Positions 45,780-63,866 of a DNA stretch of 64,000 bases are shown here, piece after piece. The position numbers were made by a program, and so were the translations under genes. The notes beneath the pieces were generated by a model. It was not told where the DNA came from. It did no database searches and saw only the letters and a program-made list of their open reading frames with translations. Source of the DNA: Dorea sp. 5-2 (GTDB taxonomy: Bacteria > Bacillota > Clostridia > Lachnospirales > Lachnospiraceae); assembly GCF_000403455.2 (NCBI RefSeq), contig NZ_KE159724.1, positions 76,071-140,070 of the forward strand, in the 5' to 3' direction. The first letter of the stretch is position 1. Each line of letters begins with the position of its first letter.

Positions 45780-46163
45780 ATGGAAAGAAAAATTAAGCGT
45801 GGCGACATATACTACGCAGAGCTTAATCCCGTTGTCGGCTCGGAACAGGGTGGCACACGTCCCGTACTTATCATTTCCAATGATATAGGAAACAGGCACA
45901 GCCCGACAGTGATTATTGCTGCCATTACAAGCAGGGTGCAGACAAAAGCGAAACTGCCGACACATACCGCAGTAAAGGATTTTGAGGGGCTTGATAAGGA
46001 TTCCATTGTCCTGCTTGAGCAAATCCGAACAGTAGATAAGAAAAGGCTGAAACAGCATATGGGCATGATGCCCGTTGAAATTATGGCAAGGGTTGATAAG
46101 GCTCTTGCCATTAGTTTATCCATGAAACAACAGAAAGCGGGGTGCAGCAATGGAACAGAATAA
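45780..46163 (+). CDS. mazF: MazF/PemK-family mRNA interferase toxin
   Basis: A 127-residue toxin fold: [40 protein letters not shown] and [20 protein letters not shown]. Arg in EQIRT and the Ser/Thr residues of VIIAAITS are the expected catalytic and binding region. Its length is normal. No MazE-like antitoxin is next to it; the following 52-residue peptide overlaps its 3' end by 14 bases but does not look like MazE. MazF relatives on integrative elements often stand alone like this. Confidence 0.88.
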
Positions 46164-46308: not shown

Positions 46309-46341
46309 CATTCATCAATAAATATTTTGGAGGTAAATCAT

Positions 46342-48473: not shown

Positions 48474-48513
48474 AGTTGTAATTGTTAGACGGCAAGATAT
48501 GGAGGATTTGAGT

Positions 48514-49764
48514 ATGGAAAAATTTCTTTCTTCATATAAGGAAAATAAAAAATTATTTTTAGGGGATACAGATTCATATACCGTGATACAGAATGGGTAT
48601 ACGGAAGAAGATTTGATTTATAAAATAAAAATGGCGGTATTATTATATGATGTTGTTTTTATACCCGCAGCATATATGTGGCAATCTGAGCAAATGAAAG
48701 AAGTTATGTATAAAATTCAATCATTGATATTGACGGAAAATGTTTTACCAATAATAAGGAAAAGTAAAGAAACACGTGATATTAAAGATTATTTTGAAAA
48801 ACGTCAAAATGAAACAAAAGAATTTAAGAATATGGAAGTATATAAAATTCCGAGTTTGGCAACGGAAATAGCAGATTCTGATGACAAAAAAGACATGAAT
48901 TTTTTAAATAACTTAAATTGTTGCCTACACTTAGAGGAAAAATCAGTTAAAGAAGAGTTTATAAATTTGTGGAAAAATGACCTTTCTAATAGTGCTGACA
49001 TTAATGCAATATCTATGATACTATATAGAAGTAATACTGATTTTTTGCATTACAATTCTATTTTGTATGAGTTAAAAAATGGTGTTGATTATACTAATTT
49101 TTCTAGAAGTACATTAATTGATTATATTTTAAAATTGGATATTTCAAAGGATGTAAAGTTGAGGATTCAGGAAAGAATATCATGGCTATATTTAAGAGCA
49201 AATGCTAAAGCTAGCCAAAGTGATTTTTTTATTTCGAAGTCAGTTGATAATACGTTGGTATATAGAGCGAATGTAGATATTTATATAGAGTTACTGAAAA
49301 ATTTTGGTATAAGCAAAATGATGATTCAGGCTTTGACAGTAGAAGAATTGATACGAATTAAATATTCACCTGAATACTTGAATTTTATTAGTAGCTATAA
49401 TGAGCTTGTGGAAAATATATATTATGAACAGAATAATTTAGTTGAAAAGACAAACAAACGTATAAATACAATGTTGCTTCATGAAAATGTTAAACGCAAA
49501 ATTTATAGTAAGTTACCAGCTATTTATGGGGTGTCGGGTACGATTTTTGTCGGTCTAATAGTTAATTATTTTTCTAGTAGTGTTATTAATGATATTGCGT
49601 TTGGTGTTTCGGGCGGAGTAGCCTTATCTTCGTATATTTTAAAAAAATTGGAACTTGTCAATAAGTCAGTTTCCAATACATCCTTTTTGGATTTTAAAGA
49701 ATATATACTAAAAGAAGAATATAAGAAAAAAATGCAAACATGTATTAATGGAGTGATATTATGA
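48514..49764 (+). CDS. unknown membrane protein coupled to a ThiC-like enzyme
   Basis: A 416-residue protein with no domain I recognise. The first 330 residues are soluble and helical (e.g. EEDLIYKIKMAVLLYDVVFI). Near residues 335-385 two hydrophobic helices occur (AIYGVSGTIFVGLIVNYF, and INDIAFGVSGGVALSSYIL), so the C-terminus is membrane-inserted. Coding DNA is very AT-rich compared with both flanks, a sign of recent transfer. The start is ATG 48514; the in-frame ATG 48499 includes the GGAGGA site. Its stop overlaps the next start (ATGA), so the two proteins are probably made in fixed ratio and act together. Confidence 0.75.
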   Translation: MEKFLSSYKENKKLFLGDTDSYTVIQNGYTEEDLIYKIKMAVLLYDVVFIPAAYMWQSEQMKEVMYKIQSLILTENVLPIIRKSKETRDIKDYFEKRQNETKEFKNMEVYKIPSLATEIADSDDKKDMNFLNNLNCCLHLEEKSVKEEFINLWKNDLSNSADINAISMILYRSNTDFLHYNSILYELKNGVDYTNFSRSTLIDYILKLDISKDVKLRIQERISWLYLRANAKASQSDFFISKSVDNTLVYRANVDIYIELLKNFGISKMMIQALTVEELIRIKYSPEYLNFISSYNELVENIYYEQNNLVEKTNKRINTMLLHENVKRKIYSKLPAIYGVSGTIFVGLIVNYFSSSVINDIAFGVSGGVALSSYILKKLELVNKSVSNTSFLDFKEYILKEEYKKKMQTCINGVIL

Positions 49765-50891
49765 AAACTAGATATAACGAATATAATGATATTGATATTT
49801 TGAAGAAAAGAATTCAAGACAACGAAGTGGTTTTTTTAAAAGGTAATAGATTTGACACTCTTGCAGGAAAAGGGTTGCAGCTAAAAATAAATAGTTCAGT
49901 AGGTTTAAGCGATGAAAGTCAATTTCAAAATGAGGTAGATAAAATATCTAAAATAGCAAGTTTTGATGTTTTGCCAGATATTATGATGGATTTAAGTATT
50001 ATTTCTGTAAAAAATCCGATATATCAAATAGTTCAAGAAAAAATAGGATGTCCTGTGGGGACGGTGCCTGTATATGTATGTTTTGACAGTAAGAAAGGAA
50101 TAGATAAGAATAAGTTTTTAGAAGAAATAGAGAAACAGGCACAAAATGGCGTATCATTTATGACATTACATTTTACAGCTATAGATGAAATATATAGAAA
50201 AACAATGAAAAGAAATATTTCTGTTATTAGTAGAGGCGGAAGTTTAGTGCTTCGAGATTTATATTTAAATAAACGAAAACAAAATTTCTTGTTGGAATAT
50301 TTCGATGATATTTGTAAAATATTAAAAAATAATTCTGTAGTAGTGAGTGTTGGCACAACTTTTAGACCATCAACTTTATACGATGCATTGGATAAGATTC
50401 AATTAAGTGAAATTAAAATGCAAAAAGACATAATAAAATTATTGCGTAAAAGAGGAATACCTGTAATGATGGAAGGTGTCGGGCATATATCTTTGAATGA
50501 TTTGAAGAAATATGTTAAGTTAATTAGGGAAGATTTCTATATACCTTTTATGCCATTGGGACCAATCCCTACGGATAGAGCGATTGGGTGGGATCATGTA
50601 TCTGCCGCAATAGGAGCTTCCTATATGGCTTTATTAGATGGAGCAGACATCATTAATGCAGTTACAAGAGAAGAGCATACTGGAGGTGTGCCAAATACAA
50701 ATTCGATTTATGAAGCTATAAAATCTGCGCAGGTAGTTGTTAATTCTATAAATGATGTTAGATTTTTTGAACAATATAATAAAGTGCAGGATGGTAGAAA
50801 AACTAATTGTATGGGAATTATAAAAGAGGATATTGGATGCGAAAGGTGTAAAGAAGAATGTCCATTCCTTTTAAATAAGCCATTAGAATAA
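49761..50891 (+). CDS. divergent ThiC/BzaF-family radical SAM enzyme
   Basis: A 376-residue protein clearly related to ThiC (HMP-phosphate synthase) and BzaF. GCPVGTVPVYVCFD, FMTLHFTAIDEIYRKTM, ISRGGSLVLRDLYLNKRKQN, VMMEGVGHISLNDLKKYVKL, MPLGPIPTDRAIGWDHVSAA and NAVTREEHTGGVPNTNSI align in order. The two zinc His of the family map to His242 (EGVGH) and His306 (REEHTGG), 64 apart as in ThiC. The C-terminal cluster motif is CERCKEEC (Cys360, 363, 367), CX2CX3C instead of the family's CX2CX4C. The ThiC N-terminal domain is absent. No thiamine or cobamide genes are nearby. The substrate is unknown. Confidence 0.8.
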   Translation: MKTRYNEYNDIDILKKRIQDNEVVFLKGNRFDTLAGKGLQLKINSSVGLSDESQFQNEVDKISKIASFDVLPDIMMDLSIISVKNPIYQIVQEKIGCPVGTVPVYVCFDSKKGIDKNKFLEEIEKQAQNGVSFMTLHFTAIDEIYRKTMKRNISVISRGGSLVLRDLYLNKRKQNFLLEYFDDICKILKNNSVVVSVGTTFRPSTLYDALDKIQLSEIKMQKDIIKLLRKRGIPVMMEGVGHISLNDLKKYVKLIREDFYIPFMPLGPIPTDRAIGWDHVSAAIGASYMALLDGADIINAVTREEHTGGVPNTNSIYEAIKSAQVVVNSINDVRFFEQYNKVQDGRKTNCMGIIKEDIGCERCKEECPFLLNKPLE

Positions 50892-51462: not shown

Positions 51463-51509
51463 GTATTCAGTGAAAGTAACTTAACTCGTATATCAGGAGA
51501 TTGAGAACG

Positions 51510-53120
51510 ATGAATAAAGATCAAGGAAGAAAGATTATGGAATACTGGGATCTTATGAGAGGGGCAGTCAGGCAAGATGATTACATTGCTGCCACTGTGC
51601 TTATAAGTGAGGTCAAGAATAGAACTTTAAAGACTGAAGTGCAGGAAACACCAGACTCAGTTTATACAACGCTTTTGGAAGTTGCTGACGAACTGCATAT
51701 TATAAATCCGTTCTCTGATAAGGAAAGATTCTTCTTTATCTATCAAGAAGGAAAACAACTTGAGAGGATGGACTGGGAAGGGGCAATTGATAAAGTTGCG
51801 CGCTTTTCAAGAATGCCTATCCTCCCTGCTCCGATTGTCAAGGTTTATGAGGAGCGCTTCTCGGTCAAGCCGGAATCAGTCCTTATAGCTGAAGCAGAGA
51901 AGTTCGTCCCTAATCTTCTTCGTATCGTTGACGAAAACATTAATTCGAGTTTTACGTTAACAACGCAGAATGCGACTTATGCGAAGGCGCTGGAATATGT
52001 GTTCACTGATTATGATAACGTCGAAGTGGTGCTGACGGATATCTACCAGTATGGTTTTGTTAACAAGAGATTTGATCTGATTTTCTCATGTCCGAACATG
52101 GGCGGTAGAACACTGGCAGAGGATAAAACCTTCATGTGCAGAGAGTTTGATATGGTAGCGCTTGAAAATTTGTCTCTCCACCTCAACAGTGGAGGACGTT
52201 TAGTAATAACACTGCCGGGAAGGATAACGTTTGCGTCCGGAAAAGTCAGCGATCTTCGACAGTTCATTCAGACGAGTTACACAATAAAAGAGATTGCTGA
52301 ACTGCCAGAAGGGTCGCTTGAATTTACAGGTATCAAGGTATATCTGCTTGATATTGAAAACACTCGTCCGGGAGACGACGATATCATCATTCGCAGATAT
52401 ACGGCCGGTGATCGAAAGACACGGAGGTCAGCGGTTACTTCTCTTGAGGTTACAGATGATACCTTTGTGATGCTTGACGAACTTGAGGAGCAGGGGGATT
52501 GGAGCATTGATCGCATCTTTGCTCAACAGGATGAAGAATACCTAAACTTTCAGAAGTCCGGGATTCGAAAGGAGTTAATCGGAAACGTTGCTCAAGTGTT
52601 CAGAGGCAAGGCTGTTAATAAGAAAGACCCTGCTGGGAATATCGGCGTTGTTAATATTTCCAATATTGGCGACTACGACATAGATTATGAGGGATTGGAT
52701 CACTTACAGGAAGAGGAACGAAAGGTGGCAAATTACCTTTTGCAAGAAGGCGATGTTCTTCTGCCGGCGAGAGGAACAGCGATTCGTACAGCGGTCTTCC
52801 ATGAACAGACATATCCGTGTATAGCATCCTCTAATGTCATCGTAATAAGACCGGATCAGAAAAACCTCGACGGATATTACCTGAAGGTGTTTTTGGATAG
52901 TCCGATAGGAAACAAGATGATAAGTGGCGCTCAGCAAGGAATGACTGTAATGAATATCAGCTATAAGGACTTGAATGTGCTTGAGGTACCACTTCCGAGT
53001 ATAAAAAAGCAACAAGCGGTAGTCACAGAGTATCAAGATGAATTAAAGAAATACAGAGAAACGGTAGCGGCTGCCGAGCAACGTTGGTGCGAAGTTCTTA
53101 AAAAGCTGCAGACGTTTTAA
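51510..53120 (+). CDS. degenerate type I methylase-like domain fused to an HsdS target-recognition domain
   Basis: A 536-residue protein. Residues about 110-290 follow the Rossmann part of HsdM-type N6-adenine methylases (FVPNLLRIVDENINSSFTLT ... KRFDLIFSCPNMGGRTLAED ... LSLHLNSGGRLVITLPGRIT). Motif I (DPACGTGG) is absent, and the NPPF/Y catalytic motif reads SCPNMGG (residues 193-199). Residues about 350-536 form a single HsdS-type recognition domain (LIGNVAQVFRGKAVNKKDPA ... QQGMTVMNISYKDLNVLEVP) with a terminal coiled coil. It is likely a specificity subunit rather than an active methylase. Start ATG 51510 after AGGAG. It precedes the ARH-HsdM gene by 16 bases. Confidence 0.75.
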   Translation: MNKDQGRKIMEYWDLMRGAVRQDDYIAATVLISEVKNRTLKTEVQETPDSVYTTLLEVADELHIINPFSDKERFFFIYQEGKQLERMDWEGAIDKVARFSRMPILPAPIVKVYEERFSVKPESVLIAEAEKFVPNLLRIVDENINSSFTLTTQNATYAKALEYVFTDYDNVEVVLTDIYQYGFVNKRFDLIFSCPNMGGRTLAEDKTFMCREFDMVALENLSLHLNSGGRLVITLPGRITFASGKVSDLRQFIQTSYTIKEIAELPEGSLEFTGIKVYLLDIENTRPGDDDIIIRRYTAGDRKTRRSAVTSLEVTDDTFVMLDELEEQGDWSIDRIFAQQDEEYLNFQKSGIRKELIGNVAQVFRGKAVNKKDPAGNIGVVNISNIGDYDIDYEGLDHLQEEERKVANYLLQEGDVLLPARGTAIRTAVFHEQTYPCIASSNVIVIRPDQKNLDGYYLKVFLDSPIGNKMISGAQQGMTVMNISYKDLNVLEVPLPSIKKQQAVVTEYQDELKKYRETVAAAEQRWCEVLKKLQTF

Positions 53121-53136
53121 AGGAGGATATCATTAA

Positions 53137-55554
53137 ATGATTGGAGCAATTATCGGAGACATCGTCGGGTCTCGTTTTGAATGGAATAATATCAAGAGTA
53201 AGGACTTCGAATTCCTTACATATAAATGCTTCCCTACTGACGACAGCATTATGACACTGGCTCTGGCGCAGGCTATTCTGGTTAGCAAAGTCGATTACAG
53301 TGATCTGCCAAAGAATGCAGTTGAATGTATGCAGTCTGTTGGCCGCAATTATCCTGACTGCGGATATGGCGGGGGCTTCCGTAAATGGATGTTCTCTGAC
53401 GATCCTAAGCCTTATAACAGCTATGGCAACGGAGCGGCCATGCGTGTAAGTGCAGCAGGTTTTGCAGCAAACAGTATTGAAGAGGCTAAGGATATAGCTA
53501 AGAAGATAACCGAAGTAACACATAACCATCCTGAAGGTATTAAGGGTGCGGAGGCAACAGCCGTGGCTATTTATATGGCCAAGACAGGCAGCAGCCTCCT
53601 GGAAATCAGGGATTATATCGATAAGAATTACTACCCGATGAACTTCACTCTGGATGGAATCAGAGCTACATACAAGTTCAACGAGACTTGCCAAGATACT
53701 GTTCCGCAGGCACTTATGGCATTCTTTGAATCGACAGATTTTGAGGATGCGATCAGGAATGCAATCTCTATCGGTGGCGACAGTGATACATTGGCTGCCA
53801 TCTGCGGAGGAGTAGCTGAGGCGTACTATGGTGTTCCCTCGGAGATAAGAAAGCATGCTCTCACCTTCTTAGATAAGCAGCTTCTCAAGATTCTGATTGC
53901 CTTTGAGAATAAATATCCGCCTGTGATGGAGAAGAAGGTCGGCGATATTAGTGTGCCGGTAGAACGTAAAACCGAACGAAAAGTTAAAGGTTCAGAACGC
54001 GAGACAATGATGGAAGAGGCTTTCCAGGCTGCCGATGACGATACTGAGGCGGCTGAGCTTACAAAAGAAGAAACCACAAGTCGCCAGCTTTTTAATCATC
54101 TGTTTGAGGCTTGCAATATTCTACGTGGCCCTATTAATCAGGACGAGTTTAAGAGCTATGTGACGCCGGTCCTGTTCTTTAAACGCATATCAGATGTTTA
54201 TGACGAAGAGTACGAGGAGGCATTGGAGTTTTCTGGAGGCGATGTTGAGTACGCAGAAGCTGAGGATATGCATTCTTTCGTAATACCTGATGGCTGCCAT
54301 TGGAATGATGTTCGTATGGTAAGTCAGGATGTCGGAAAAGCGATTGTTAAGGCGATGACTGGCATTGAAAAGGCAAATCCAGATACTCTGTCCGGTGTTT
54401 TCAGCAGCTTTGATGATGCAACCTGGACCGATAAGAATAAACTTACCGATGAGCGCCTTAAGAATTTGATTGAACATATGTCGCTTATCAAGGTTGGTAA
54501 CAAGAATTATTCTGCAGATATCATGGGCGACAGCTACGAATTTCTTATAAAGAAGTTTGCGGACATGTCGAAGAAAAATGCCGGAGAGTTCTATACACCG
54601 AGAACTATTGTAAAGCTGATGGTGGATTTGCTTGATCCTAAGCCCGGTGAAACTGTTTATGATCCTGCCTGTGGCACAGGTGGAATGCTTATCGAAGCGA
54701 TACATCATATGAATAATGACAGACTCGCTTACGGTAGGATTTTTGGACAGGAGAACAATCTCTCTACCTCGGCCATTGCTCGAATGAATTTGTATCTGCA
54801 CGGTGCAAAGGATGTTCAGGTTAAGCAGGGAGATACGTTAAGAAATCCGCTGTTCCTCGAAAAAGGGAAACTTAAGACCTTTGACTGCGTACTTGCAAAT
54901 CCTCCCTTCGGTATGGAAAAGTGGGGAGCGGGCCAGTTTGAGTCGGATCAGTACGGACGTAATATGTGGGGATGCCCTTCAGATTCCAGTGCGGATTTTG
55001 CATGGCTGCAGCACATGATTAAATCTATGGACCCGAAGACTGGCCGATGCGCAGTCGTTCTTCCACAAGGAGTGCTATTCCATTCAGGAAAAGAAGGAGA
55101 CATTCGAGAACAGCTTGTTCGCTCGGATAAGTTGGAAGCGGTTATTACTTTGGCAAGCGGCGTGTTCTATAGCACCGGTGTATCCGCCTGCATTCTGTTC
55201 CTCAATAACAAGAAGGAGCATAAACACAAGGGCAGAATTTGTCTGATCGATGGAACAGAGGTTTACACACCACAGCGAGCACAGAATATTATCTCGCCGG
55301 ATAACGTGAAGACTCTTTATAAGTTCTATACCGACTATGTAGATGTTATCGAAAAGTGCAAGATCGTTACGATTGATGACGTGGGGAAAGGCGGCTTTGA
55401 GCTTAGTGTTAAGAAGTATATCGAGCAGAAAGCCAAAGAAGTAATACCACATGAAAAGGTATTGATGGCATATTACGAAGCACTTATGAAGGTTCGTAAG
55501 TCCGAGGAGAAAATGAGAAATCTGCTCATCGAAGGAGGGTATGTTAATGAGTAA
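53137..55554 (+). CDS. ADP-ribosylglycohydrolase-HsdM fusion, type I DNA methyltransferase
   Basis: An 805-residue fusion. Residues 1-265 are an ADP-ribosylglycohydrolase (ARH/DraG) domain with its metal motifs intact: PTDDSIMTL (Thr34-Asp35-Asp36), SYGNGAAMRVSAAG, EVTHNHPEGIKGAEA and GGDSDTLAAICGG (213-225). A charged linker of about 45 residues leads to a full HsdM from about residue 310: SRQLFNHLFEACNILRG, SAM motif VYDPACGTGGMLIEA (Asp509-Gly516) and catalytic NPPF (588-591). The frame is continuous; internal ATGs at 54006/54009 lack a ribosome-binding site. The ARH part predicts removal of ADP-ribose from a protein or nucleic acid; the HsdM part predicts N6-adenine methylation. I know no described system with this fusion. 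Confidence 0.85.
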   Translation: MIGAIIGDIVGSRFEWNNIKSKDFEFLTYKCFPTDDSIMTLALAQAILVSKVDYSDLPKNAVECMQSVGRNYPDCGYGGGFRKWMFSDDPKPYNSYGNGAAMRVSAAGFAANSIEEAKDIAKKITEVTHNHPEGIKGAEATAVAIYMAKTGSSLLEIRDYIDKNYYPMNFTLDGIRATYKFNETCQDTVPQALMAFFESTDFEDAIRNAISIGGDSDTLAAICGGVAEAYYGVPSEIRKHALTFLDKQLLKILIAFENKYPPVMEKKVGDISVPVERKTERKVKGSERETMMEEAFQAADDDTEAAELTKEETTSRQLFNHLFEACNILRGPINQDEFKSYVTPVLFFKRISDVYDEEYEEALEFSGGDVEYAEAEDMHSFVIPDGCHWNDVRMVSQDVGKAIVKAMTGIEKANPDTLSGVFSSFDDATWTDKNKLTDERLKNLIEHMSLIKVGNKNYSADIMGDSYEFLIKKFADMSKKNAGEFYTPRTIVKLMVDLLDPKPGETVYDPACGTGGMLIEAIHHMNNDRLAYGRIFGQENNLSTSAIARMNLYLHGAKDVQVKQGDTLRNPLFLEKGKLKTFDCVLANPPFGMEKWGAGQFESDQYGRNMWGCPSDSSADFAWLQHMIKSMDPKTGRCAVVLPQGVLFHSGKEGDIREQLVRSDKLEAVITLASGVFYSTGVSACILFLNNKKEHKHKGRICLIDGTEVYTPQRAQNIISPDNVKTLYKFYTDYVDVIEKCKIVTIDDVGKGGFELSVKKYIEQKAKEVIPHEKVLMAYYEALMKVRKSEEKMRNLLIEGGYVNE

Positions 55555-57040
55555 GAAAATCACACAAGAAGAGCTTGAATCATATCTTTGGGGTTCGGCT
55601 GTCCTCCTGAGAAATCATATTGATGCAGGAGCTTATAAGCAGTACATATTCCCTTTGTTATTTTTCAAACGCCTTAATGACGTGTACGAGGAAGAAACAC
55701 AAAATGCAATAAATAATAACGGTCCTGAAGCTGCTGATTGGGAGGAAACCCACAACTATACAATTCCCGATGGCGCACATTGGGATGATGTTAGAAACGT
55801 TCCTGAAAATGTGGGTAAGGCAATCCAAGCTGCATTTCGGGCGATAGAAAGTGCAAACAGCGACAAGCTGACAGGGATTTTTGGAGATGGTACCTGGACC
55901 AATAAAAGACGTCTCCCTGATCGCCTTTTGAAAGATTTGCTTGAACACTTTAGTGCTAAGACTCTCTCAATTGAGAACTGCCCTGAAGATGAACTGGGAC
56001 AGGGATACGAATATTTGATTAAGCAGTTTGCTGATGACAGCGGACATACAGCTCAGGAGTTTTATACTAACAGAACTGTGGTGCATCTTATGACGGAGAT
56101 GTTGAAGCCAGAATCAGGAGAAGCCATTTATGATCCTACCTGTGGAAGTGCCGGTATGTTGATCTCCGCGATATCATACTTGAAGGATCAGAAAAAAGAG
56201 TGGAGAAATGTCTCCCTTTATGGGCAGGAAATAAATGCTCTGACAGCGGCTATTGCAAGAATGAATCTGTTCCTTCACGGCATAGAGGATTTCCAGATTG
56301 TAAATGGTGATACGCTTGCAGCGCCAGCGTTTATTGAGCGGGGCAAACTGAAAACCTTCGACCTGGTACTGGCGAATCCTCCGTACTCTATCAAGGAGTG
56401 GAGCCGCGATGCCTTCTCAGCAGATAAGTATGGTCGTAACTTTCTGGGTGTTCCTCCGCAGGGACGTGCTGACTACGCCTTCTTACAGCACATTATAAAG
56501 AGCCTGGACGAGAAAACGGGTCGATGTGCAATACTCTTCCCTCACGGAGTTCTGTTCCGTAATGAGGAAAGTGACATGCGAGAGAAGCTGGTAAGAGGCG
56601 ACTACGTTGAATGCGTTATCGGGCTTGCTCCGAACCTGTTTTATAACTCACCAATGGAGGCATGTATTGTGATTTGTCGCATGAATAAAGCAGTAGAGCG
56701 TCGAGGAAAGGTCCTGTTTATTAATGCAGTTAATGATGTGGAACGAAAGAATGCACAGAGTTATCTGACAGATACTCATATAAAGAGAATTGCAGATGCT
56801 TATGCTGCTTACAAGAATGACGATGGTTTTGCACATGTGGCGTCAATAAAAGATATCGAGGAAAACAATTTCTCGTTGAGCATTCCATTGTATGTGAAGC
56901 CGGCTGTCGATGAGTCCGCGGTAGATACATATACATTACAGCAACACTATGAAAGCTGGAGAGCATCTTCGGAACGAGCTCTCAAATACTATACGCTATT
57001 GAACGAAATGATAAAGAAAGGCGGTGAGGCGGATGTCTAA
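55547..57040 (+). CDS. hsdM: type I restriction-modification methyltransferase subunit HsdM
   Basis: A 497-residue HsdM. The N-terminal helical domain (LESYLWGSAVLLRNHIDAGA YKQ) precedes the catalytic domain with SAM motif IYDPTCGSAGMLISA and catalytic NPPY (LVLANPPYSIKEW). It is a separate paralogue of the HsdM half of the upstream fusion, without an ARH domain. Start ATG 55547 is seven bases after AAGGAGGG; ATG 55541 is too close. Its end overlaps the half-HsdS start by 8 bases. Confidence 0.92.
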   Translation: MSKKITQEELESYLWGSAVLLRNHIDAGAYKQYIFPLLFFKRLNDVYEEETQNAINNNGPEAADWEETHNYTIPDGAHWDDVRNVPENVGKAIQAAFRAIESANSDKLTGIFGDGTWTNKRRLPDRLLKDLLEHFSAKTLSIENCPEDELGQGYEYLIKQFADDSGHTAQEFYTNRTVVHLMTEMLKPESGEAIYDPTCGSAGMLISAISYLKDQKKEWRNVSLYGQEINALTAAIARMNLFLHGIEDFQIVNGDTLAAPAFIERGKLKTFDLVLANPPYSIKEWSRDAFSADKYGRNFLGVPPQGRADYAFLQHIIKSLDEKTGRCAILFPHGVLFRNEESDMREKLVRGDYVECVIGLAPNLFYNSPMEACIVICRMNKAVERRGKVLFINAVNDVERKNAQSYLTDTHIKRIADAYAAYKNDDGFAHVASIKDIEENNFSLSIPLYVKPAVDESAVDTYTLQQHYESWRASSERALKYYTLLNEMIKKGGEADV

Positions 57041-57617
57041 GGTTTTATTGGGTGATGTTGCTCATGAGCATAAGGAGACCTGCAAGGGAAGCAAAGATGG
57101 ATATCCTATCGTAGGCTTGGAACATTTGATTCCTGAAGAGATCACCCTCACGACGTGGGATGAAGGAAGCGAGAATACCTTTACAAAAATGTTCCGTAAG
57201 GGCAATGTGCTGTTCGGTCGCCGTCGTGCTTATCTTAAGAAGGCTGCAGTTGCACCGTTTGACGGAATATGCTCCGGTGATATTACAGTTATTGAGGCTG
57301 ACCCGGATAAGATACTTCCTGATCTTCTGCCGTTTATTATTCAGAACGATGATCTGTTTGATTTTGCGGTAGGAAAGTCTGCCGGCTCACTTTCGCCACG
57401 TGTAAAGTGGGAGCATCTCAAGAATTATGAATTTGAGCTGCCGGATATGGATAAGCAGAAAGAGCTTGCAGAGCTTCTGTGGGCGATTGATGATACGAAG
57501 AAGTCCTATCAAGAATTGATCGCAGCGACAGATGAATTGGTGAAATCTCAATTTATCGGGCCCGCTGATCATAAGCGATTAACGGTCTATGGCGCTTCCG
57601 AGAGGAGGTGTGCTTAA
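57033..57617 (+). CDS. hsdS: half-size HsdS specificity subunit (single TRD)
   Basis: A 194-residue protein with one target-recognition domain (VLLGDVAHEHKETCKGSKDG ... RKGNVLFGRRRAYLKKAAVA ... SAGSLSPRVKWEHLKNYEFE) and a spacer coiled coil ending ATDELVKSQF. At KSQFIG the sequence leaves the family and ends 21 residues later. The break falls exactly at the TCTCAATTTAT repeat (57546), so it looks like a product of cassette recombination. It may dimerise as a half-subunit or be a truncated remnant. TAATG overlap with the next hsdS. Confidence 0.82.
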   Translation: MSKVLLGDVAHEHKETCKGSKDGYPIVGLEHLIPEEITLTTWDEGSENTFTKMFRKGNVLFGRRRAYLKKAAVAPFDGICSGDITVIEADPDKILPDLLPFIIQNDDLFDFAVGKSAGSLSPRVKWEHLKNYEFELPDMDKQKELAELLWAIDDTKKSYQELIAATDELVKSQFIGPADHKRLTVYGASERRCA

Positions 57618-58756
57618 TGGCAAAATATCGATTTGATCAGATAGCTATAAACAGTACAGAAAAGAAAAAGCCAGTTGAGGAAGATCGCTTCACATACCTC
57701 GGGTTGGAGCATTTAGATTCGGGTAGTCTGAAAGTCTCCCGGTTCGGTTCCGAAGTGGCTCCAATTGGAGAAAAACTTATCATGCATAAGGGTGATGTGC
57801 TTTTCGGTAAGCGAAGAGCGTACCAGAAAAAAGTTGCTATTGCACCGTTTGACGGTATTTTCTCAGCTCATGGTATGGTGTTAAGGCCGAAAGAAGATGT
57901 GATAGATAAGGACTTTTTCCCGCTATTCATTAGCTCCGATTACTTCTTGGATGCGGCAATAAAGATATCGGTGGGTTCACTTTCTCCGACAATTAATTGG
58001 CGCGACTTGAAGGAACTTGAATTTGAGCTTCCTGACCTTGATACACAACGACGCCTTGCCGCTGTTTTATGGTCGATGAACGAGACGATGGATTCTTATA
58101 AAGAACTGATTGCAGCTACGGATGAACTCGTTAAGTCTCAATTTATGGAGCAGTTTAAGGAGCTGATAAATCATCCCGACGCATGTTCAAAGATTGAGGA
58201 TGAATGTACTGTATTTGCCGATGGCGATTGGATTGAAAGCAAGGATCAGTCAGAAGAAGGAATTAGGTTAATTCAGACAGGGAATATAGGAAACGCACAG
58301 TATTTAGACAAGGGAGAAAGGGCGAGATATATCACGGAAGATACATTTGATAGGCTGAATTGTACTGAGGTCAAAGCAAATGATATTTTGATTTCCCGTT
58401 TACCTGATCCGGTAGGAAGGGCCTGCATAGTGCCAGAAGGACTTGGAAAGTGCATTACAGCCGTTGACTGTACTATCGTGCGTTTGGGTTCAAGAATTCT
58501 GCCTGAGTACTTTATAGCGTATACTCTTTCTCCGTTTTATATGATGCAGGTTGCGTCGAGAGAAACAGGAAGCACTCGGAAAAGAATAAGCAGAAAGAAC
58601 CTTGGCATATTGAAAATTCCAGTGCCGACGATTGCAGAACAGGAGACCTTTGCATCGGTTGTTAGACAGAGCGATAAATCAAAATTTGAAATGGAACAAG
58701 CGCTCTCAGAGCTGACTGCTACCTATAAACGTATCATAACAGAAAACCTTGGCTAA
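57617..58756 (+). CDS. hsdS: HsdS specificity subunit (two TRDs)
   Basis: A 379-residue S subunit. TRD1 (residues 1-150, with KGDVLFGKRRAYQKKVAIAP), a central coiled coil ending ATDELVKSQFMEQF, TRD2 (about 190-340, with RLIQTGNIGNAQYLDKGERA and ETGSTRKRISRKNLGILKIP), and a second conserved helix. It sets the two-part DNA target of the HsdM2S complex. The repeat TCTCAATTTATGGAGCAGTT (58136-58155) at the TRD1/TRD2 boundary recurs at 60331. TRD1 resembles the TRD of the preceding half-gene. Start ATG 57617 after AGGAGGT. Confidence 0.92.
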   Translation: MAKYRFDQIAINSTEKKKPVEEDRFTYLGLEHLDSGSLKVSRFGSEVAPIGEKLIMHKGDVLFGKRRAYQKKVAIAPFDGIFSAHGMVLRPKEDVIDKDFFPLFISSDYFLDAAIKISVGSLSPTINWRDLKELEFELPDLDTQRRLAAVLWSMNETMDSYKELIAATDELVKSQFMEQFKELINHPDACSKIEDECTVFADGDWIESKDQSEEGIRLIQTGNIGNAQYLDKGERARYITEDTFDRLNCTEVKANDILISRLPDPVGRACIVPEGLGKCITAVDCTIVRLGSRILPEYFIAYTLSPFYMMQVASRETGSTRKRISRKNLGILKIPVPTIAEQETFASVVRQSDKSKFEMEQALSELTATYKRIITENLG

Positions 58757-58830
58757 GAAATAAGGTCATGAAGTTTCCTCCGGCTCGTGAGGATACCGGA
58801 AACGGAGGAACAGAAAAGGAGGAAACTATC

Positions 58831-59808
58831 ATGATCAGTCAAGTAATAACCAAGATCCAGGATGAACTTAGCAGCATCCTGGATGAGAATCAAAAGAAAT
58901 GCCTTTCGGAGGTACTACAAAAGTATCTAACTCCTCTTGAAGAAGGAGAGAAGAAAGACACAACTGAGAAAAATGACATGCTACCGGTTTTCATAGCCGC
59001 AAAGCGTGTCGAGGGATGTTCAGAAAAATCCCTCCGCTACTACGAATCTACAATCCGGAATATGCTTGAAAGCATAGGTAAACCGGAATGTCAGATAACA
59101 ACAGAGGACCTTCGCTCATACCTCGACACTTACCAGCGTCGAGGAACTGTGAGTAAAGTAACCCTCGATAATGTGAGACGCATCCTGTCCAGTTTCTTTG
59201 CCTGGCTCGAAGATGAAGATTATATCGTCAAGAGCCCGGTGAGAAGGATTCATAAAGTTAAAACCGGAAAAACGGTAAAAGAAACCTATACAGACGAATC
59301 ACTGGAGCTGATGCGGGATCATTGCGAAAACACTCGTGACCTTGCGATGATTGACCTTTTGGCCTCGACAGGGATTAGAGTTGGAGAGTTAGTAAAGCTC
59401 AATCGTAATGACGTGGACTTTGACAACAGGGAATGTATTGTTTTTGGAAAGGGCAATAAGGAACGAAAAGTATACTTTGACGCTCGAACAAAAATCCATT
59501 TGCAGCGATATCTGGCTGAAAGGACAGATCAGAACGATGCTCTGTTCGTATCACTGCTTAAGCCGTTTGATCGTTTACAGATCAGTGGTGTGGAAATCCG
59601 TCTCCGCAAAATTGGACGGGAGCTTAATTTCCAGAAGGTACATCCGCATAAGTTTCGCAGAACGCTGACTACGATGGCAATAGATAAAGGTATGCCGATA
59701 GAACAAGTGCAGCAGCTTCTTGGTCACCAGAGCATTGATACTACACTGCAGTACGCTATGGTGAATCAGAATAATGTGAAGGAATCGCATCGAAAGTTCA
59801 TCGGATAG
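58831..59808 (+). CDS. tyrosine recombinase (Xer/phage-integrase type) within the hsdS cluster
   Basis: A 325-residue integrase. The N-terminal SAM-like core-binding domain is FIAAKRVEGCSEKSLRYYES. The catalytic domain has Arg in LLASTGIRVGELVKLNRNDV, HxxR in VHPHKFRRTLTTMAID, and His and nucleophile Tyr in LLGHQSIDTTLQYAMV. Its place between expressed and silent specificity cassettes matches hsdS-shuffling recombinases known from other type I systems. The likely substrate is the short repeat at TRD boundaries. Start ATG 58831 after AAAGGAGG. Confidence 0.9.
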   Translation: MISQVITKIQDELSSILDENQKKCLSEVLQKYLTPLEEGEKKDTTEKNDMLPVFIAAKRVEGCSEKSLRYYESTIRNMLESIGKPECQITTEDLRSYLDTYQRRGTVSKVTLDNVRRILSSFFAWLEDEDYIVKSPVRRIHKVKTGKTVKETYTDESLELMRDHCENTRDLAMIDLLASTGIRVGELVKLNRNDVDFDNRECIVFGKGNKERKVYFDARTKIHLQRYLAERTDQNDALFVSLLKPFDRLQISGVEIRLRKIGRELNFQKVHPHKFRRTLTTMAIDKGMPIEQVQQLLGHQSIDTTLQYAMVNQNNVKESHRKFIG

Positions 59809-59819
59809 CTGTTTGCAAT

Positions 59820-60359
59820 TCTCAATTTATCGAGATGTTCGGAGACCCTAAAAATAGTGATGATGCAGTAAGCTTTGAGACAGCTTTCACGATAAGAGAT
59901 GATTTGCGAAAACCTATTAATGACGCAGTTCGATCTGAAATGCATACTGGACAGCTATATCCATACTATGGAGCAAACGGCCAAGTAGACAGCATTAATG
60001 AATATCTTATGGATTGTGATGCGATTTGCCTTGCTGAAGATTATGGTGCATACGGTGCTAGAGAGCATACATCATACATCGTTTCAGGGAAATGCTGGGT
60101 AAATAACCATGCTCATGTCCTTATTCCGAAAGAATGTTGTGACATTGAGTTCGCAAATGTTTATTTCCGAATATTGGACATGACGGAGTATGTGAACGGT
60201 ACAACGCGACTTAAGCTCACGCAGGCAAAGATGAAAATGTTACCTATGATCTTGCCTTCCTTGGATGAACAGAGAGAGTTTGCGAGCTTTGTTCAGCAGA
60301 GCGAAAATTTGCTGCTCGGATGTGTTCAAATCTCAATTTATGGAGCAGTTCGATCTTGA
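59820..60359 (+). pseudogene. silent HsdS cassette 1 (one TRD, no start)
   Basis: Begins inside the repeat with SQFIEMFGDPKN, the usual HsdS spacer motif. One TRD follows (YYGANGQVDSINEYLMDCDA, EDYGAYGAREHTSYIVSGKC, MTEYVNGTTRLKLTQAKMKM) with a conserved helix. No ribosome-binding site or start codon precedes the repeat. Its reading frame ends just past the next repeat, out of frame with it. It is best read as a donor for recombination with the expressed genes. Confidence 0.75.
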
Positions 60360-60990
60360 AAAATCAAGGCAAAACGGTTGGCAAATTATGCCCCTGAAAG
60401 ATGCAGTTGAGAAGCCTATGAGTGGCGAGTGGGGCTCTGATGATAAGGATGGCACAGGTATTAAGGTGCTTCGGACAGCTAATTTCACAGACGCGGGTGT
60501 CATTGATTATTCTGAGGTGGTCACAAGGCAGATCGATCCTAAGAAACTTGAAAGCAAGGCAATGAAAGAGGGTGACATTCTGATTGAAAAATCAGGGGGA
60601 TCTGACACTAAGCCGGTTGGTAGAGTAGTGTTCTACACAGGAACTGCAGGAGAATACCTATTTAATAACTTTACTTCGGTGCTGCGTCCAAAGAATACAC
60701 TGGACATACTCAAGCGATACTTATTTCAGTTTATGTATGTTTCGTACTGGAATGGTGGTACACGGTTATATGAAAACAAAACGACAGGGCTTCATAATTT
60801 GAGGTTAAATGAATACCTTGAGGGAACAGACATACCGGTTCCGCCGATGGAGGTGCAAAAAGCATTTGTTGAATTTTTAGAGCAGAGCGATAAATCAAAA
60901 TATTTACTACAAAATTGGTATGAGATAATGAATCAAATAGACAGGAGGTTACTCACATGTTTAATGAAGACAACACGACTGAGCAGATGA
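60331..60990 (+). pseudogene. silent HsdS cassette 2 (one TRD, no start)
   Basis: Begins with the repeat (SQFMEQFDLEKSRQNGW). A TRD follows (MPLKDAVEKPMSGEWGSDDK, EGDILIEKSGGSDTKPVGRV, YWNGGTRLYENKTTGLHNLR) with a spacer helix (VQKAFVEFLEQSDKSKYLLQ). It has no own start and ends inside the hsdR start region (overlap of 34 bases). A second donor cassette, in the same orientation as the expressed genes. Confidence 0.75.
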
Positions 60991-63866
60991 TTATATCTAC
61001 GCTCAAGAAAAATGGCTGGGAGTACATCTCAGCAGACGACCTTGACAGAGAAGAAAGCGATGTCATGGTGGAGTCTATGGTGCGTGATGCACTTATTAGA
61101 CTCAATCCCGAAATTGCAGAGGATGAATCACGTGCTGATGAGATCATATATAAGCTTCGCACTCTTTTCCTCTCAACAAATGCGCAAAACCTTGTCACCC
61201 AGAATGAAGCCTTCAAACAGATGGTTTTTGAGAAGAACTCATATCCATTTGGTGAGGACGGCAAGCAGGTGTCAATCGACTTCTTTGGTACTGAAATTAA
61301 TGGCAAGCTGGACCGGAACCAGTATGTTGTTACGAATCAGTGGGTTTATCCGAAGAAGGAAGGCGGTAAACGTCTGGATATCGTTCTTCTGGTGAATGGC
61401 TTCCCATTTGCTATCGGTGAGCTGAAGACACCGGTCCGTGCAGCTATCACATGGCTGGACGGAGCACAGGACATAAACAAATACGAGCAGAGTATTCCGC
61501 AGATGTTTGTAACGAACGTATTTAACTTCGCTACAGAGGGTAAATGCTATCGTTATGGCTCCGTCTGCATGCCGGCTGCAAAGTACGGTCCTTGGCATAC
61601 AACTGATGATAAGTCGGATGGCTCTTTGGCAGCAGTACAGACGAGCGTGCAGGATATGATCACGAAGTATAAGATCATGGACCTGTTCCAGTTCTTTACC
61701 CTTTATGCGACCGACAGCAAGTATCGTAAATACAAGGTCATTGCCCGCTACCAGCAGTATGAAGGAGCGAACATGATCATCGAACGTGTACGTGCGGGAT
61801 ATCCGAAGAAGGGTCTTATCTGGCACTTCCAGGGCTCCGGTAAATCATACCTTATGGAGTTTGCCGCTGTTAAGCTTCGTATGCTGCCGGACCTTAAGAA
61901 TCCTACTGTTATCATTGTCGATGACCGTCTGGATCTGGAGTCGCAGATTACAGCACAGTTCCATTCTTCTGACGTCGGAAACCTGGAGTCTGCATCGACA
62001 AGAGACCAGCTTATGACGATGCTACGTCAGGATATCCGTAAGATTATTATCACGACCATCTTCCGCTTCCAGGAAGTAACCGGTGAGCTCAGCCCGCGTG
62101 ACAACATCATCGTAATGGTCGATGAGTGCCACAGGACGCAGGAAGGTGACCTCGGTATCAAGATGAGAACGGCCCTGCCGAACGCATTCTTCTTCGGTAT
62201 GACAGGTACACCTATCAACCGTCTGGACAAGAATACGTTTGCAACATTCGGTGCAACTGAGGACCGCAGCGGATATATGAGCAAGTATTCCTTCTCAGAT
62301 TCTATCCGCGACCATGCTACACTGCCTCTTAACTTTGAGCCGGTACCGGTTGACCTTCGTGTGGACAGAGATACGATGGACCGCGAGTTTGATATCTTGA
62401 CACGCGACCTGCCGGATTCCGATAAGGCAGAGCTTTCCAAGCGTGTTAATATGCAGGCCATCATGTACAACGAGAAGCGTATTCATAAGGTCTGCGCACA
62501 TATTGCAAAGCATTTCACTGAGAAGATCCGTCCGAACGGATACAAGGCGCAGGTGGTTGTTTACGACCGTCCTTGCTGCCTTAAGTATAAAGCGGAGTTG
62601 GATAAGCTCCTGGGCGAAGAATGCTCGACAATCGTCATGGATACTAACGATGATAAGGCTGACGAGTACAAGAAGTATCGCCGTTCAAAGGATGAGGAAG
62701 CTAAGGTGCTCGATCGCTTCAGAGACCCTAACGATCCGCTTGAGATTGTTATTGTAACGGCTAAGCTATTGACCGGTTTCGATGCTCCTATCCTTCAGGT
62801 TATGTACCTGGATAAGCCGATGAAAGACCACACCCTGTTGCAGGCGATCTGCCGTACAAACCGTACCTTTGATGAAGGTAAGACTCACGGCCTGATTGTC
62901 GACTATATCGGTATCTTCGATAACGTGGCCAAGGCACTCGACTTCGACGAAGGTAGCATGAAGAAGGTCATTACAAACATCGAGGAAGTAAAGAAGCAGA
63001 TTCCGGCGCTCCTTAGAAAGTGCCTCAGCTACTTCATGGGTGTTGACCGTACCGTAGATGGCTGGGAAGGCTTGATGGCTGCGCAGGAATGCCTGCCTAC
63101 CAATGCCGAGAAGGATAAGTTCGCCGCGGACTATCAGGTCCTTAACCGCGCATGGAACGCAGTCTCCCCTGATCCGATGCTTTCACCTATCCAGGCCGAT
63201 TACGTATGGCTGACTAAGGTGTTTGAATCCGTAAAGCCTACCAACGGCGGTGGCGGACTCATCTGGGCTGCGCTCGGACCTAAGACGATGGAGATAGTAA
63301 ATTCCAACATGGATGTCGGCGAAGTACATGAGGACGAGGAGATTCTTTCTCTTGATGCAGAGCTCATCGATGCCTTTATCGAAAAACATAAAGGCGCGAA
63401 GAATGCAGCGAAGAAGGTCGAGATTGACCTTGTGGCTCGTATTCATAAGCATTCCGATGATCCGAAGTTCATGCGCTTAGGCGATAAGCTGGAGAAGCTC
63501 CGTGAGCAGCACGAGCAGGGTCTGATTAACAGTATCGAGTTCCTGAAGATGCTGCTTGAGCTCGCAAGAGAAGCAGCACAAGCTGAGAAGGAAGTCGTAC
63601 CGGAGGAAGAAGTCGACAAGGGCAAGGCAGCACTTACCGAACTTTTCAACGGTGTGAAGAATACCAATACACCTGTCATTGTTGAGCGTATCGTTACGGA
63701 CATTGACGATATCGTAAAGATCGTCCGCTTCGATGGTTGGCAGAATACGACTGGCGGTCGCCAGGAAGTAAAGAAGGCACTCCGCAGTGTCGTATGGGTA
63801 AAATACAAGATTAAGGATAAGGAAGTATTCGATAAGGCATACAGTTATATTGAACAGTACTATTAA
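60957..63866 (+). CDS. hsdR: type I restriction endonuclease subunit HsdR
   Basis: A 969-residue HsdR. The nuclease core is GGKRLDIVLLVNGFPFAIGE then LKTP (D...ExK). Translocase motifs follow: Walker A WHFQGSGKSYLMEF, Walker B MVDECHRTQEGDLG, motif III FFGMTGTPINRL, and motifs V/VI VTAKLLTGFDAPILQVMYLD and LLQAICRTNRTFDEGK. The C-terminal helical domain is intact. It translocates DNA and cuts when unmodified targets stall it. Start ATG 60957 after AGGAGG, overlapping silent cassette 2. One HsdR serves two HsdM genes here. Confidence 0.95.
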   Translation: MFNEDNTTEQMIISTLKKNGWEYISADDLDREESDVMVESMVRDALIRLNPEIAEDESRADEIIYKLRTLFLSTNAQNLVTQNEAFKQMVFEKNSYPFGEDGKQVSIDFFGTEINGKLDRNQYVVTNQWVYPKKEGGKRLDIVLLVNGFPFAIGELKTPVRAAITWLDGAQDINKYEQSIPQMFVTNVFNFATEGKCYRYGSVCMPAAKYGPWHTTDDKSDGSLAAVQTSVQDMITKYKIMDLFQFFTLYATDSKYRKYKVIARYQQYEGANMIIERVRAGYPKKGLIWHFQGSGKSYLMEFAAVKLRMLPDLKNPTVIIVDDRLDLESQITAQFHSSDVGNLESASTRDQLMTMLRQDIRKIIITTIFRFQEVTGELSPRDNIIVMVDECHRTQEGDLGIKMRTALPNAFFFGMTGTPINRLDKNTFATFGATEDRSGYMSKYSFSDSIRDHATLPLNFEPVPVDLRVDRDTMDREFDILTRDLPDSDKAELSKRVNMQAIMYNEKRIHKVCAHIAKHFTEKIRPNGYKAQVVVYDRPCCLKYKAELDKLLGEECSTIVMDTNDDKADEYKKYRRSKDEEAKVLDRFRDPNDPLEIVIVTAKLLTGFDAPILQVMYLDKPMKDHTLLQAICRTNRTFDEGKTHGLIVDYIGIFDNVAKALDFDEGSMKKVITNIEEVKKQIPALLRKCLSYFMGVDRTVDGWEGLMAAQECLPTNAEKDKFAADYQVLNRAWNAVSPDPMLSPIQADYVWLTKVFESVKPTNGGGGLIWAALGPKTMEIVNSNMDVGEVHEDEEILSLDAELIDAFIEKHKGAKNAAKKVEIDLVARIHKHSDDPKFMRLGDKLEKLREQHEQGLINSIEFLKMLLELAREAAQAEKEVVPEEEVDKGKAALTELFNGVKNTNTPVIVERIVTDIDDIVKIVRFDGWQNTTGGRQEVKKALRSVVWVKYKIKDKEVFDKAYSYIEQYY

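What the first reader, a model, noticed from the sequence alone, without database searches (positions are those of the whole stretch)
53137..55554. ADP-ribosylglycohydrolase fused to a type I DNA methyltransferase
One uninterrupted 805-codon frame joins a complete ARH/DraG domain, with its TDDS, NGAAMR, THNHPE and GGDSDT metal/active-site motifs intact, to a complete HsdM with DPACGTGG and NPPF. ARH enzymes remove ADP-ribose from proteins or nucleic acids; HsdM methylates adenine. A fusion suggests the restriction-modification complex is gated by ADP-ribosylation, for example protecting itself or host DNA from a phage or host ADP-ribosyltransferase. I know no described system of this type.
Basis: partly seen in the sequence, partly recalled or inferred. 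Interest (0 to 1): 0.87.

Follow-up and report, generated by a model that had tools for sequence, protein, structure and literature searches.

The report
ADP-ribose-removing domain fused to restriction methylase
In several groups of Bacillota, a DNA restriction-modification system with two different methylases carries an enzyme domain predicted to strip ADP-ribose tags, perhaps so that viruses cannot switch the defence off by tagging it.

Summary
Window 53137-55554 is one 805-codon frame: an ARH/DraG domain (residues 1-260), a linker and a full HsdM. Eighteen further loci carry the fusion (13 complete frames), so it is no assembly artefact. The proposed metal and catalytic residues are intact in every fused copy that reaches them; measurable pairs show strong purifying selection on both domains. 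(1) The gene is the M1 (NPPF, m6A) subunit of a two-methylase type I system; the next gene is M2 (NPPY, predicted m4C), and each best matches its namesake in the PacII M1M2S structure. (2) A protein with a degenerate methylase domain and half a specificity subunit lies upstream in 15 of 17 assessable fused loci. (3) The ARH is exchanged as a module; relatives are fused to HD, SseB, GNAT or DUF6508 domains, and the first two are listed in print as partners in proposed host systems against viral ADP-ribosylation. Best reading: a restriction complex with a built-in de-ADP-ribosylating guard against phage transferases. Activity, substrate and phenotype are untested. The paper searches showed no such fusion; REBASE and the 2016 paper on m4C type I systems could not be read.

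The parts
53121..53126 (+). ribosome-binding site AGGAGG, 10 nt before the start codon of the fusion
   Evidence: read directly from the sequence
53137..55554 (+). ARH-HsdM1 fusion, 805 aa: predicted ADP-ribosyl hydrolase joined to the m6A (NPPF) methylase subunit M1
   Evidence: ORF; Pfam; best PDB hit for the methylase half 7vru_A, PacII M1 by its motifs; fold match
53137..53916 (+). ARH/DraG domain, residues 1-260; proposed metal/catalytic residues E15, T34, D35, D36, D215, D217, T218 and H129
   Evidence: Pfam PF03747 119.9 bits; alignment to ARH3 structures; conservation counts
53917..54075 (+). linker, residues 261-313, fast evolving
   Evidence: dN 0.20-0.96 against the window in 10 pairs
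54076..55551 (+). HsdM1: HsdM_N and N6_Mtase domains; AGEF at 482-485 and NPPF at 588-591
51501..53120 (+). HsdSx: degenerate N6-methylase domain (SCPN here at the NPPF/NPPY place; NPIF or SxPx forms in relatives) plus one target-recognition half of an S subunit, 539 aa
   Evidence: TRD half matches PDB 8vsq/8vsr Esub1 at 135 bits; present in 15 of 17 assessable fused loci, window counted
55541..57040 (+). HsdM2, NPPY methylase subunit, predicted m4C; overlaps the end of the fusion gene by 14 bp
   Evidence: best PDB hit 7vru_B, PacII M2 by its motifs, 581 bits
57024..57617 (+). S1: half specificity subunit, 197 aa
   Evidence: Methylase_S
57608..58756 (+). S2: specificity subunit with two target-recognition domains, 382 aa
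   Evidence: Methylase_S, two stretches
58768..59808 (+). tyrosine recombinase (Xer type) inside the specificity cluster
   Evidence: PF00589, NF040815
59835..60359 (+). S3: partial specificity gene
   Evidence: Methylase_S
60265..60990 (+). S4: partial specificity gene
   Evidence: Methylase_S
57538..60346 (+). four direct copies (71-100% alike) of a 24-nt repeat (57538, 58128, 59812, 60323) in the specificity cluster, candidate recombination sites
   Evidence: the repeat finder
60957..63866 (+). HsdR, 969 aa, restriction and translocation subunit
   Evidence: HSDR_N, SWI2_SNF2, T1R_D3-like; TIGR00348 477.7 bits against cut-off 284.55

Best explanation
This is a mobile type I restriction-modification system of the non-canonical m6A/m4C (M1M2S) kind, in which the m6A subunit M1 carries an N-terminal, probably active ADP-ribosyl hydrolase. 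Shown here: the anatomy, its conservation and the selection on it. Inferred from families: M1 makes m6A, M2 makes m4C, S recognises, R cuts; the ARH domain hydrolyses ADP-ribose from a macromolecule with a di-metal centre. Inferred mechanism: phages (and rival elements) ADP-ribosylate host proteins in infection; the tethered hydrolase keeps the restriction complex and its nearby partners free of ADP-ribose, so restriction and methylation survive the attack. It would be an anti-counter-defence module built into the restriction enzyme. The upstream HsdSx protein is probably an auxiliary DNA-binding subunit of the same system.
For: Fusion in 19 loci with the window, 14 complete. E15, T34, D35, D36 intact in 17 of 17 fused copies that reach them; D215, D217, T218, H129 in 19 of 19. 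Window against L005: dN/dS 0.026 for ARH, 0.016 for M1. M1 matches PacII M1 (461.9 bits) over PacII M2 (401.4); M2 matches PacII M2 (581) over M1 (425.1). The stand-alone copy L017 stays under constraint (against fused L005 dN/dS 0.12 at dS 0.25), so the hydrolase is useful without the methylase. Of 7 related clostridial ARHs in long frames scanned, 3 carry SseB (L093, L095, L096) and 1 HD_4 (L090); these are partners that PMC9503650 section 3.8 (read) lists for ARG-centred host systems proposed to oppose viral ADP-ribosylation. Pfam recognised no ADP-ribosyltransferase among 9 window genes and 13 genes lying before the fusion in L003, L006, L008, L067, L072, L075, the pattern that paper uses to infer an outside opponent. 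The close stand-alone ARH L016 lies next to an AIPR phage-resistance gene.
Against: No activity, substrate or phage phenotype was measured. PMC9503650 gave no occurrence of the words restriction-modification or methylase, so the link to type I systems is mine. The transferase search was partial: Pfam on the genes named, DarT in the genome; other ART families were not excluded (uninformative). The Nudix/WYL regulators and phosphatases of the ARG-centred systems were not seen here. Of the 7 proteins, two (L091, L094) show no second domain and L044 has DUF6508 under its cut-off. T128 of the TH motif that PMC9503650 calls conserved is Ser in 5 of 19 fused copies. Nothing shows that phages of these hosts modify type I enzymes. 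The ARH is exchanged independently of M1, so its tie to this enzyme may be loose.
Confidence: 0.42

Rival explanations
1. The ARH domain acts on DNA: it removes ADP-ribose from bases or DNA ends so that sites modified by a DNA-targeting transferase can be recognised, methylated or repaired.
For: The domain is tethered to a DNA methylase that holds DNA in a central tunnel in the PacII structure (paper abstract). That some ARH enzymes act on ADP-ribosylated nucleic-acid ends is recalled, not from a call.
Against: No DarT match in the genome. PMC9503650 states that characterised ARG members act on ADP-ribosylated proteins or OAADPr. I saw no evidence tying DNA ADP-ribosylation to these loci.
Confidence: 0.15
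2. Host-controlled switch: a resident transferase ADP-ribosylates M1, R or S to turn the system off, and the ARH domain turns it on, as DraT and DraG do for nitrogenase.
For: The DraG model is the third family by score on the fusion (66.8 bits) and DraG is the textbook reversible pair (recalled).
Against: The score is far below the DraG cut-off of 337.05 bits; no transferase was recognised among the genes scanned, and the cassettes occur in many hosts, so they would need a partner of their own.
Confidence: 0.13
3. The ARH domain degrades a soluble ADP-ribose derivative (an immune or stress signal) and is merely docked on the methylase.
For: PMC9503650 notes ARG members that act on OAADPr and says contextual evidence suggests a wider range of substrates.
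Against: The same paper argues from phyletic patterns that ARG prefers macromolecular adducts. A soluble signal needs no tether to a DNA enzyme.
Confidence: 0.1
4. The ARH domain is catalytically idle here and serves as an ADP-ribose sensor or as a scaffold.
For: Other enzyme folds are known to have become sensors (recalled). T128 varies to Ser in 5 of 19 fused copies.
Against: E15, T34, D35, D36, D215, D217 and T218 are kept in every fused copy that reaches them, whereas unfused copies show a few losses (E15 in 2 of 23, D217 in 1 of 23).
Confidence: 0.1
5. Passenger: an ARH gene next to hsdM fused by chance and is kept because the methylase is selected.
For: At least one likely loss: L014, without ARH, is sister to the fused L007 (100/96).
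Against: ARH dN/dS 0.026 and 0.044 in the two pairs printed where it can be measured, a stand-alone copy remains constrained, and ARH modules have been swapped while kept.
Confidence: 0.1

Closest known systems
PacII and other non-canonical m6A/m4C type I systems (M1M2S; PDB 7vru, 7vs4; PMC9613975: outline, abstract and 12 passages seen)
   Same: Two unlike HsdM subunits; NPPF with AGEF in M1, NPPY in M2, S and R subunits; each window methylase matches its PacII namesake best; the fusion model's best fold match is PacII M1.
   Different: PacII M1 is a 499-aa chain in the PDB matched only by our residues 317-802, so it has no ARH domain. Window M2 has AQEF in place of AAEF. I saw no counterpart of HsdSx in the passages of that paper.
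ADP-ribosylglycohydrolases (PF03747; ARH3, DraG, MJ1187, Lmo0067)
   Same: Family score, TDD and GGDSDT metal motifs, glutamate of the active site.
   Different: About 260 residues against chains of 297-366 residues in the solved relatives; far below the DraG and Tri1 equivalog cut-offs; fused to a DNA methylase.
ARG-centred host systems proposed to counter viral ADP-ribosylation (PMC9503650, section 3.8 read)
   Same: ARH domain without a recognised transferase partner; subfamily relatives fused to SseB or HD domains, both listed there.
   Different: No Nudix/WYL regulator or phosphatase among the window genes scanned; here the partner is a type I methylase, a word not found in that paper.
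Esub1 (PDB 8vsq; 8vsr is titled Co-crystal structure of Prx with Esub1)
   Same: The C-terminal 180 residues of HsdSx match it at 135 bits; fold TM-score 0.80-0.85 by target length.
   Different: Esub1 chains have 198-206 residues, without the degenerate methylase domain; what Esub1 does was not found in the held papers.

Membership tests
m6A/m4C type I R-M system (M1M2S) | M1 with NPPF and AGEF | tested here: met
   NPPF 588-591, AGEF 482-485; best match PacII M1
m6A/m4C type I R-M system (M1M2S) | M2 with NPPY and AAEF | tested here: inconclusive
   NPPY present; AQEF in place of AAEF
m6A/m4C type I R-M system (M1M2S) | S with two TRDs and an HsdR in the same locus | tested here: met
   S2 has two Methylase_S stretches; HsdR passes TIGR00348
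m6A/m4C type I R-M system (M1M2S) | m6A on one strand and m4C on the other at one site | not testable with these tools
   needs long-read methylation data
ADP-ribosylglycohydrolase (PF03747) | curated family score | tested here: met
   119.9 bits against 26.2
ADP-ribosylglycohydrolase (PF03747) | metal and catalytic residues | tested here: met
   aligned to ARH3 (residue roles recalled); 17 of 17 and 19 of 19 fused copies
ADP-ribosylglycohydrolase (PF03747) | hydrolysis of an ADP-ribose bond | not testable with these tools
   enzyme assay needed
DraG equivalog (TIGR02662) | curated cut-off 337.05 bits | tested here: not met
   66.8 bits
Tri1 ADP-ribosylarginine hydrolase (NF041672) | curated cut-off 490 bits | tested here: not met
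   31.9 bits
MADS (MAD2 methylase, NF047738) | curated cut-off 720 bits | tested here: not met
   90.1 bits
hsdM equivalog (TIGR00497) | curated cut-off 242.75 bits | tested here: not met
   192.2 bits for M1, 198.7 for M2; the Pfam HsdM domains pass
ARG-centred anti-viral-ADPr system | ARH without a coupled transferase | tested here: inconclusive
   none recognised by Pfam in 9 window genes and 13 upstream genes of relatives; no DarT match in the genome; other ART families not excluded
ARG-centred anti-viral-ADPr system | Nudix or WYL regulator, phosphatase or chaperone partner (each frequent, not universal, in that paper) | tested here: not met
   none among the 13 window genes scanned with Pfam

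The most novel reading that the evidence does not exclude
A restriction-modification enzyme with its own de-ADP-ribosylating domain: an anti-counter-defence module fused to the subunit which, in PacII, binds S first and starts assembly of the complex. It would make these the first restriction systems known to me that resist inactivation by phage ADP-ribosyltransferases, and would imply that phages of gut Bacillota disarm type I systems by ADP-ribosylation.
Probability: 0.35. Interest if true: 0.88.

Novelty: new variant of a known kind. Interest (0 to 1): 0.62.

Why it matters
Type I systems are among the best-studied bacterial defences, and DNA mimics such as Ocr and ArdA are known to block them (PMC9613975, passage). 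Host answers to phage ADP-ribosylation are only predicted so far (PMC9503650). A conserved, movable fusion of an ADP-ribosyl hydrolase to a type I methylase ties the two fields together and gives a single-residue test (hydrolase-dead, methylase-intact) of whether ADP-ribosylation is used against restriction. The HsdSx protein that usually travels with it is a second unexplained part.

Tried and rejected
Assembly error or chance fusion: rejected by 18 further loci. Always two separate genes: rejected; in the unfused-M1 loci run through BLAST (L014, L015, L018-L028, L076) no ARH match stood beside M1. Separate translation of HsdM from an internal start: no AGGAGG before the linker ATGs. Membership in DraG, Tri1 or MADS: scores far below cut-offs. 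Plasmid or phage cargo: no record holds 80% of the fusion in one place (0 of 3493 matching plasmid records; 0 of 145 matching phage records). A resident DarT partner: no match (its control rang in 1 of 14 genomes). PF03496 gave nothing, but no control rang either, so it says nothing. One Macro-domain match lies on another contig. HsdSx as a factor of the nearby serine recombinase was considered, because that recombinase stands upstream of HsdSx in the window and in L012; not pursued, since BLAST with the window copy found it in no other HsdSx locus, though several of those have little flank. HsdSx and ARH as one unit: not borne out, HsdSx distances follow M2 (r 0.62) and M1 (0.54) at least as well as ARH (0.48). 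Identity of Esub1: two paper searches found nothing relevant, nor did two on cassette recombination; only the PDB titles are known. The 2016 paper that defined m4C type I systems (recalled) is not held under the DOI I tried.

Rows dropped and limits: L011 was left out of the M1 tree because its contig begins inside M1; L013 fell out because under 200 M1 residues are left; L020 fell out because its gene scored better against M2 than M1. L050 and L057 in that tree are distant HsdM with very long branches and carry no weight. Loci duplicating others were skipped. The scan uses six peptide patterns and finds close relatives only, so its counts are no prevalence. The genome searches scored at most two or four candidates per genome. 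Alignments A1 and A2 and the distance comparison use some of the loci only (10 of 19 fused systems).
Full report
OBSERVATION. The frame 53137-55554 (+) encodes 805 aa without interruption. Pfam finds ADP_ribosyl_GH at 1-233, HsdM_N at 320-448 and N6_Mtase at 459-767, all far above cut-offs. AGGAGG precedes the first ATG by 10 nt and none precedes the ATGs in the linker, so the two domains are most likely made as one chain.

IT RECURS. A pattern scan of the genome-contig collection (84,980 species genomes by its description), which reaches close relatives only, gave 28 loci: 11 with the fusion (L002-L010, L012, L013), 13 with an unfused HsdM1-like gene, 3 with the ARH alone (L016, L017, L029) and one (L011) whose contig begins inside HsdM1. 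IMG/VR added L061, L062, L063 and L067 (L060 repeats the window's operon, L064 and L065 repeat L011 and L007). With the window that is 19 fused loci, 14 of them complete frames; L010 and L062 are 98% identical over 1419 bp. In an even sample of the window's family the fusion is in 4 of 348 genomes, in the class sample in 2 of 391, the window's genome counted in both. Record titles place fused genes in Lachnospiraceae, Eubacterium, Ruminococcus, Phascolarctobacterium, Veillonellaceae, Selenomonadales and Streptococcus anginosus J4206 (truncated there); nearly all named records are metagenome assemblies. It is rare but widespread in Bacillota.

WHAT THE METHYLASE IS. The operon has two complete HsdM genes. 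M1 (in the fusion) has AGEF and NPPF, M2 (55541-57040) has AQEF and NPPY. In the PDB, M1 matches 7vru_A (461.9 bits) better than 7vru_B (401.4), and M2 matches 7vru_B (581) better than 7vru_A (425.1); the alignments show AGEF and NPPF in chain A, AAEF and NPPY in chain B, so A is PacII M1 and B is M2. PMC9613975 (outline, abstract and passages seen) describes such systems: M1 with NPPF makes m6A, M2 with NPPY makes m4C, one of each sits on one S, and M1 binds S first. The AlphaFold2 model of the fusion (mean pLDDT 81, pTM 0.62, 16 sequences) has PacII M1 as its best structural match. The pTM and the spread of the five models (81 to 67) leave the orientation of the ARH open, and no ARH structure is among the 50 listed matches, which the methylase fills.

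WHAT THE ARH IS. By sequence the domain is closest to ARH3-type, MJ1187, 2cwc, Lmo0067 and DraG structures. Alignment places E15 at the catalytic glutamate and T34-D35-D36 and D215, D217, T218 at the metal site (residue roles recalled from ARH3 literature). Fused copies keep E15, T34, D35 and D36 in 17 of 17 (two are cut) and D215, D217, T218 and H129 in 19 of 19; T128 is Ser in 5 of 19. Of 23 ARH copies without HsdM, E15 is changed in 2 and D217 in 1. dN/dS between window and L005 is 0.026 for ARH, 0.086 for the linker and 0.016 for M1; most other pairs are saturated at synonymous sites.

ORIGIN AND EXCHANGE. In a 42-row ARH tree, the 19 fused copies form one neighbourhood (94/90) with four rows lacking HsdM inside it (L016, L017, L033, L034); the label needs 4 changes, against a mean of 14.0 for shuffles. 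In a 33-row M1 tree (18 fused) it needs 3, against 11.1; L014, without ARH, is sister to the fused L007 (100/96), which looks like a loss. ARH and M1 do not share one history: L006 and L067 are 90% alike in ARH but 67% in M1 (dN 0.057 against 0.274). Across 10 systems, M1 and M2 distances agree closely (r 0.81) while ARH and M1, one polypeptide, agree less (r 0.47, Mantel p 0.02), and HsdSx follows M2 (0.62) and M1 (0.54) as well as ARH (0.48). So the ARH seems to be swapped at the linker as a module. The stand-alone L017 ends in linker-like sequence (by eye) and lies at dS 0.25 from the fused L005 with dN/dS 0.12, so it has stayed under constraint without the methylase.

A COMPANION GENE. HsdSx (51501-53120) has a degenerate methylase domain (SCPN at the catalytic motif) and one target-recognition half. 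It stands upstream in 15 of 17 fused loci where this can be judged, directly or with a few genes between; it is missing in L008 (10 kb searched) and L075 (4.4 kb), which are sisters in the M1 tree (98/98), so the fusion does not depend on it. It was not found in four unfused relatives: L014, L015 and L076 (about 10 kb upstream each) and L082 (genome G483, in the sample). In 348 family genomes HsdSx is found in 4, three of them next to the fusion; the fourth, G631, is a 27% relative without it. Its TRD half matches Esub1, a chain crystallised alone and with a protein called Prx. Genes between HsdSx and the fusion vary: an HNH protein (L006), a Schlafen-group helicase and a weak SRA match under its cut-off (L067), a DUF2971 protein (L072). 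This looks like a slot for defence genes.

MECHANISM. The commitment is that the ARH removes ADP-ribose put on the complex or its neighbours by phage transferases. The anatomy and selection are shown. That it hydrolyses ADP-ribose is inferred from the family. That the target is protein, and the opponent a phage, rests on PMC9503650 section 3.8 (read), which infers such a role for ARH systems without a transferase partner and lists SseB and HD partners. I find SseB (L093, L095, L096), HD_4 (L090), GNAT (L042) and DUF6508 (L037) fused to members of the same clostridial ARH subfamily, and two long frames (L091, L094) without a recognised partner. Against it: no activity data, an incomplete search for transferases, and no regulator or phosphatase among the window genes scanned.

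NOVELTY. Four paper searches paired ARH names with HsdM, restriction-modification, type I restriction, DNA methylase or DraG. No title or abstract start in the listings (20 of 47 papers shown) names such a fusion. Six papers were opened by word search: in PMC3321955, PMC3900703 and PMC3482391 the ARH passages concern separate genes or an immunity protein; PMC5198162 has no ADP-ribos- word; PMC9503650 has no restriction-modification or methylase; PMC9613975, has no ADP-ribos- word. The others were seen as listings only. The library is open-access only; REBASE and the 2016 paper on m4C type I systems (recalled; not held) could not be read, so prior notice of the fusion is possible. Each half is of a known kind, and the combination is a new variant of the m6A/m4C type I system.

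Noticed in passing
57024-60990; L007 against L065; L011: Split and duplicated specificity genes around a Xer-type tyrosine recombinase, with four direct copies of a 24-nt repeat: a probable shuffling system for target specificity. L007 and L065, otherwise 100% identical, differ at the end of their S gene, and L011 holds a 1.7-kb direct duplication with two recombinase genes.
   Followed up: partly
46327-48126 and L012:6210-8042: A large serine recombinase (related to cassette chromosome recombinases) lies upstream of HsdSx in the window, and a 61% identical one in S. anginosus J4206, where genes that look like conjugation genes follow (recognised by eye); the cassette probably rides integrative elements.
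   Followed up: partly
45780-46163: PemK/MazF-like toxin gene next to the serine recombinase; no antitoxin was looked for.
   Followed up: no
48499-50891: A 421-aa protein without any Pfam match, overlapping by 4 bp the start of a short ThiC-family radical SAM protein (376 aa, below the NCBIfam ThiC cut-offs): an odd pair upstream of the operon.
   Followed up: no
L090, L093, L095, L096, L037, L042: Relatives of this ARH in Clostridia are fused to HD_4, SseB, DUF6508 or GNAT domains: a modular ADP-ribose-processing family.
   Followed up: partly
L006:5937-9982, L067:2254-5870, L003:9336-9977, L072:4954-5925: A variable slot between HsdSx and the fusion holds a protein of about 210 aa without Pfam match (three loci, alike by eye), a 785-codon frame without Pfam match, an HNH protein, a weak SRA match, a Schlafen-group helicase and a DUF2971 protein.
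   Followed up: partly
L016:2665-3519: A stand-alone ARH 92% identical to the window's sits beside an AIPR gene and keeps residues like the first part of the linker, suggesting descent from a fused gene.
   Followed up: partly
L060 (IMGVR_UViG_2563367178_000010): A contig 100% identical to the window's proteins from the fusion to HsdR is filed as viral in IMG/VR; it may be a mobile element rather than a phage.
   Followed up: no
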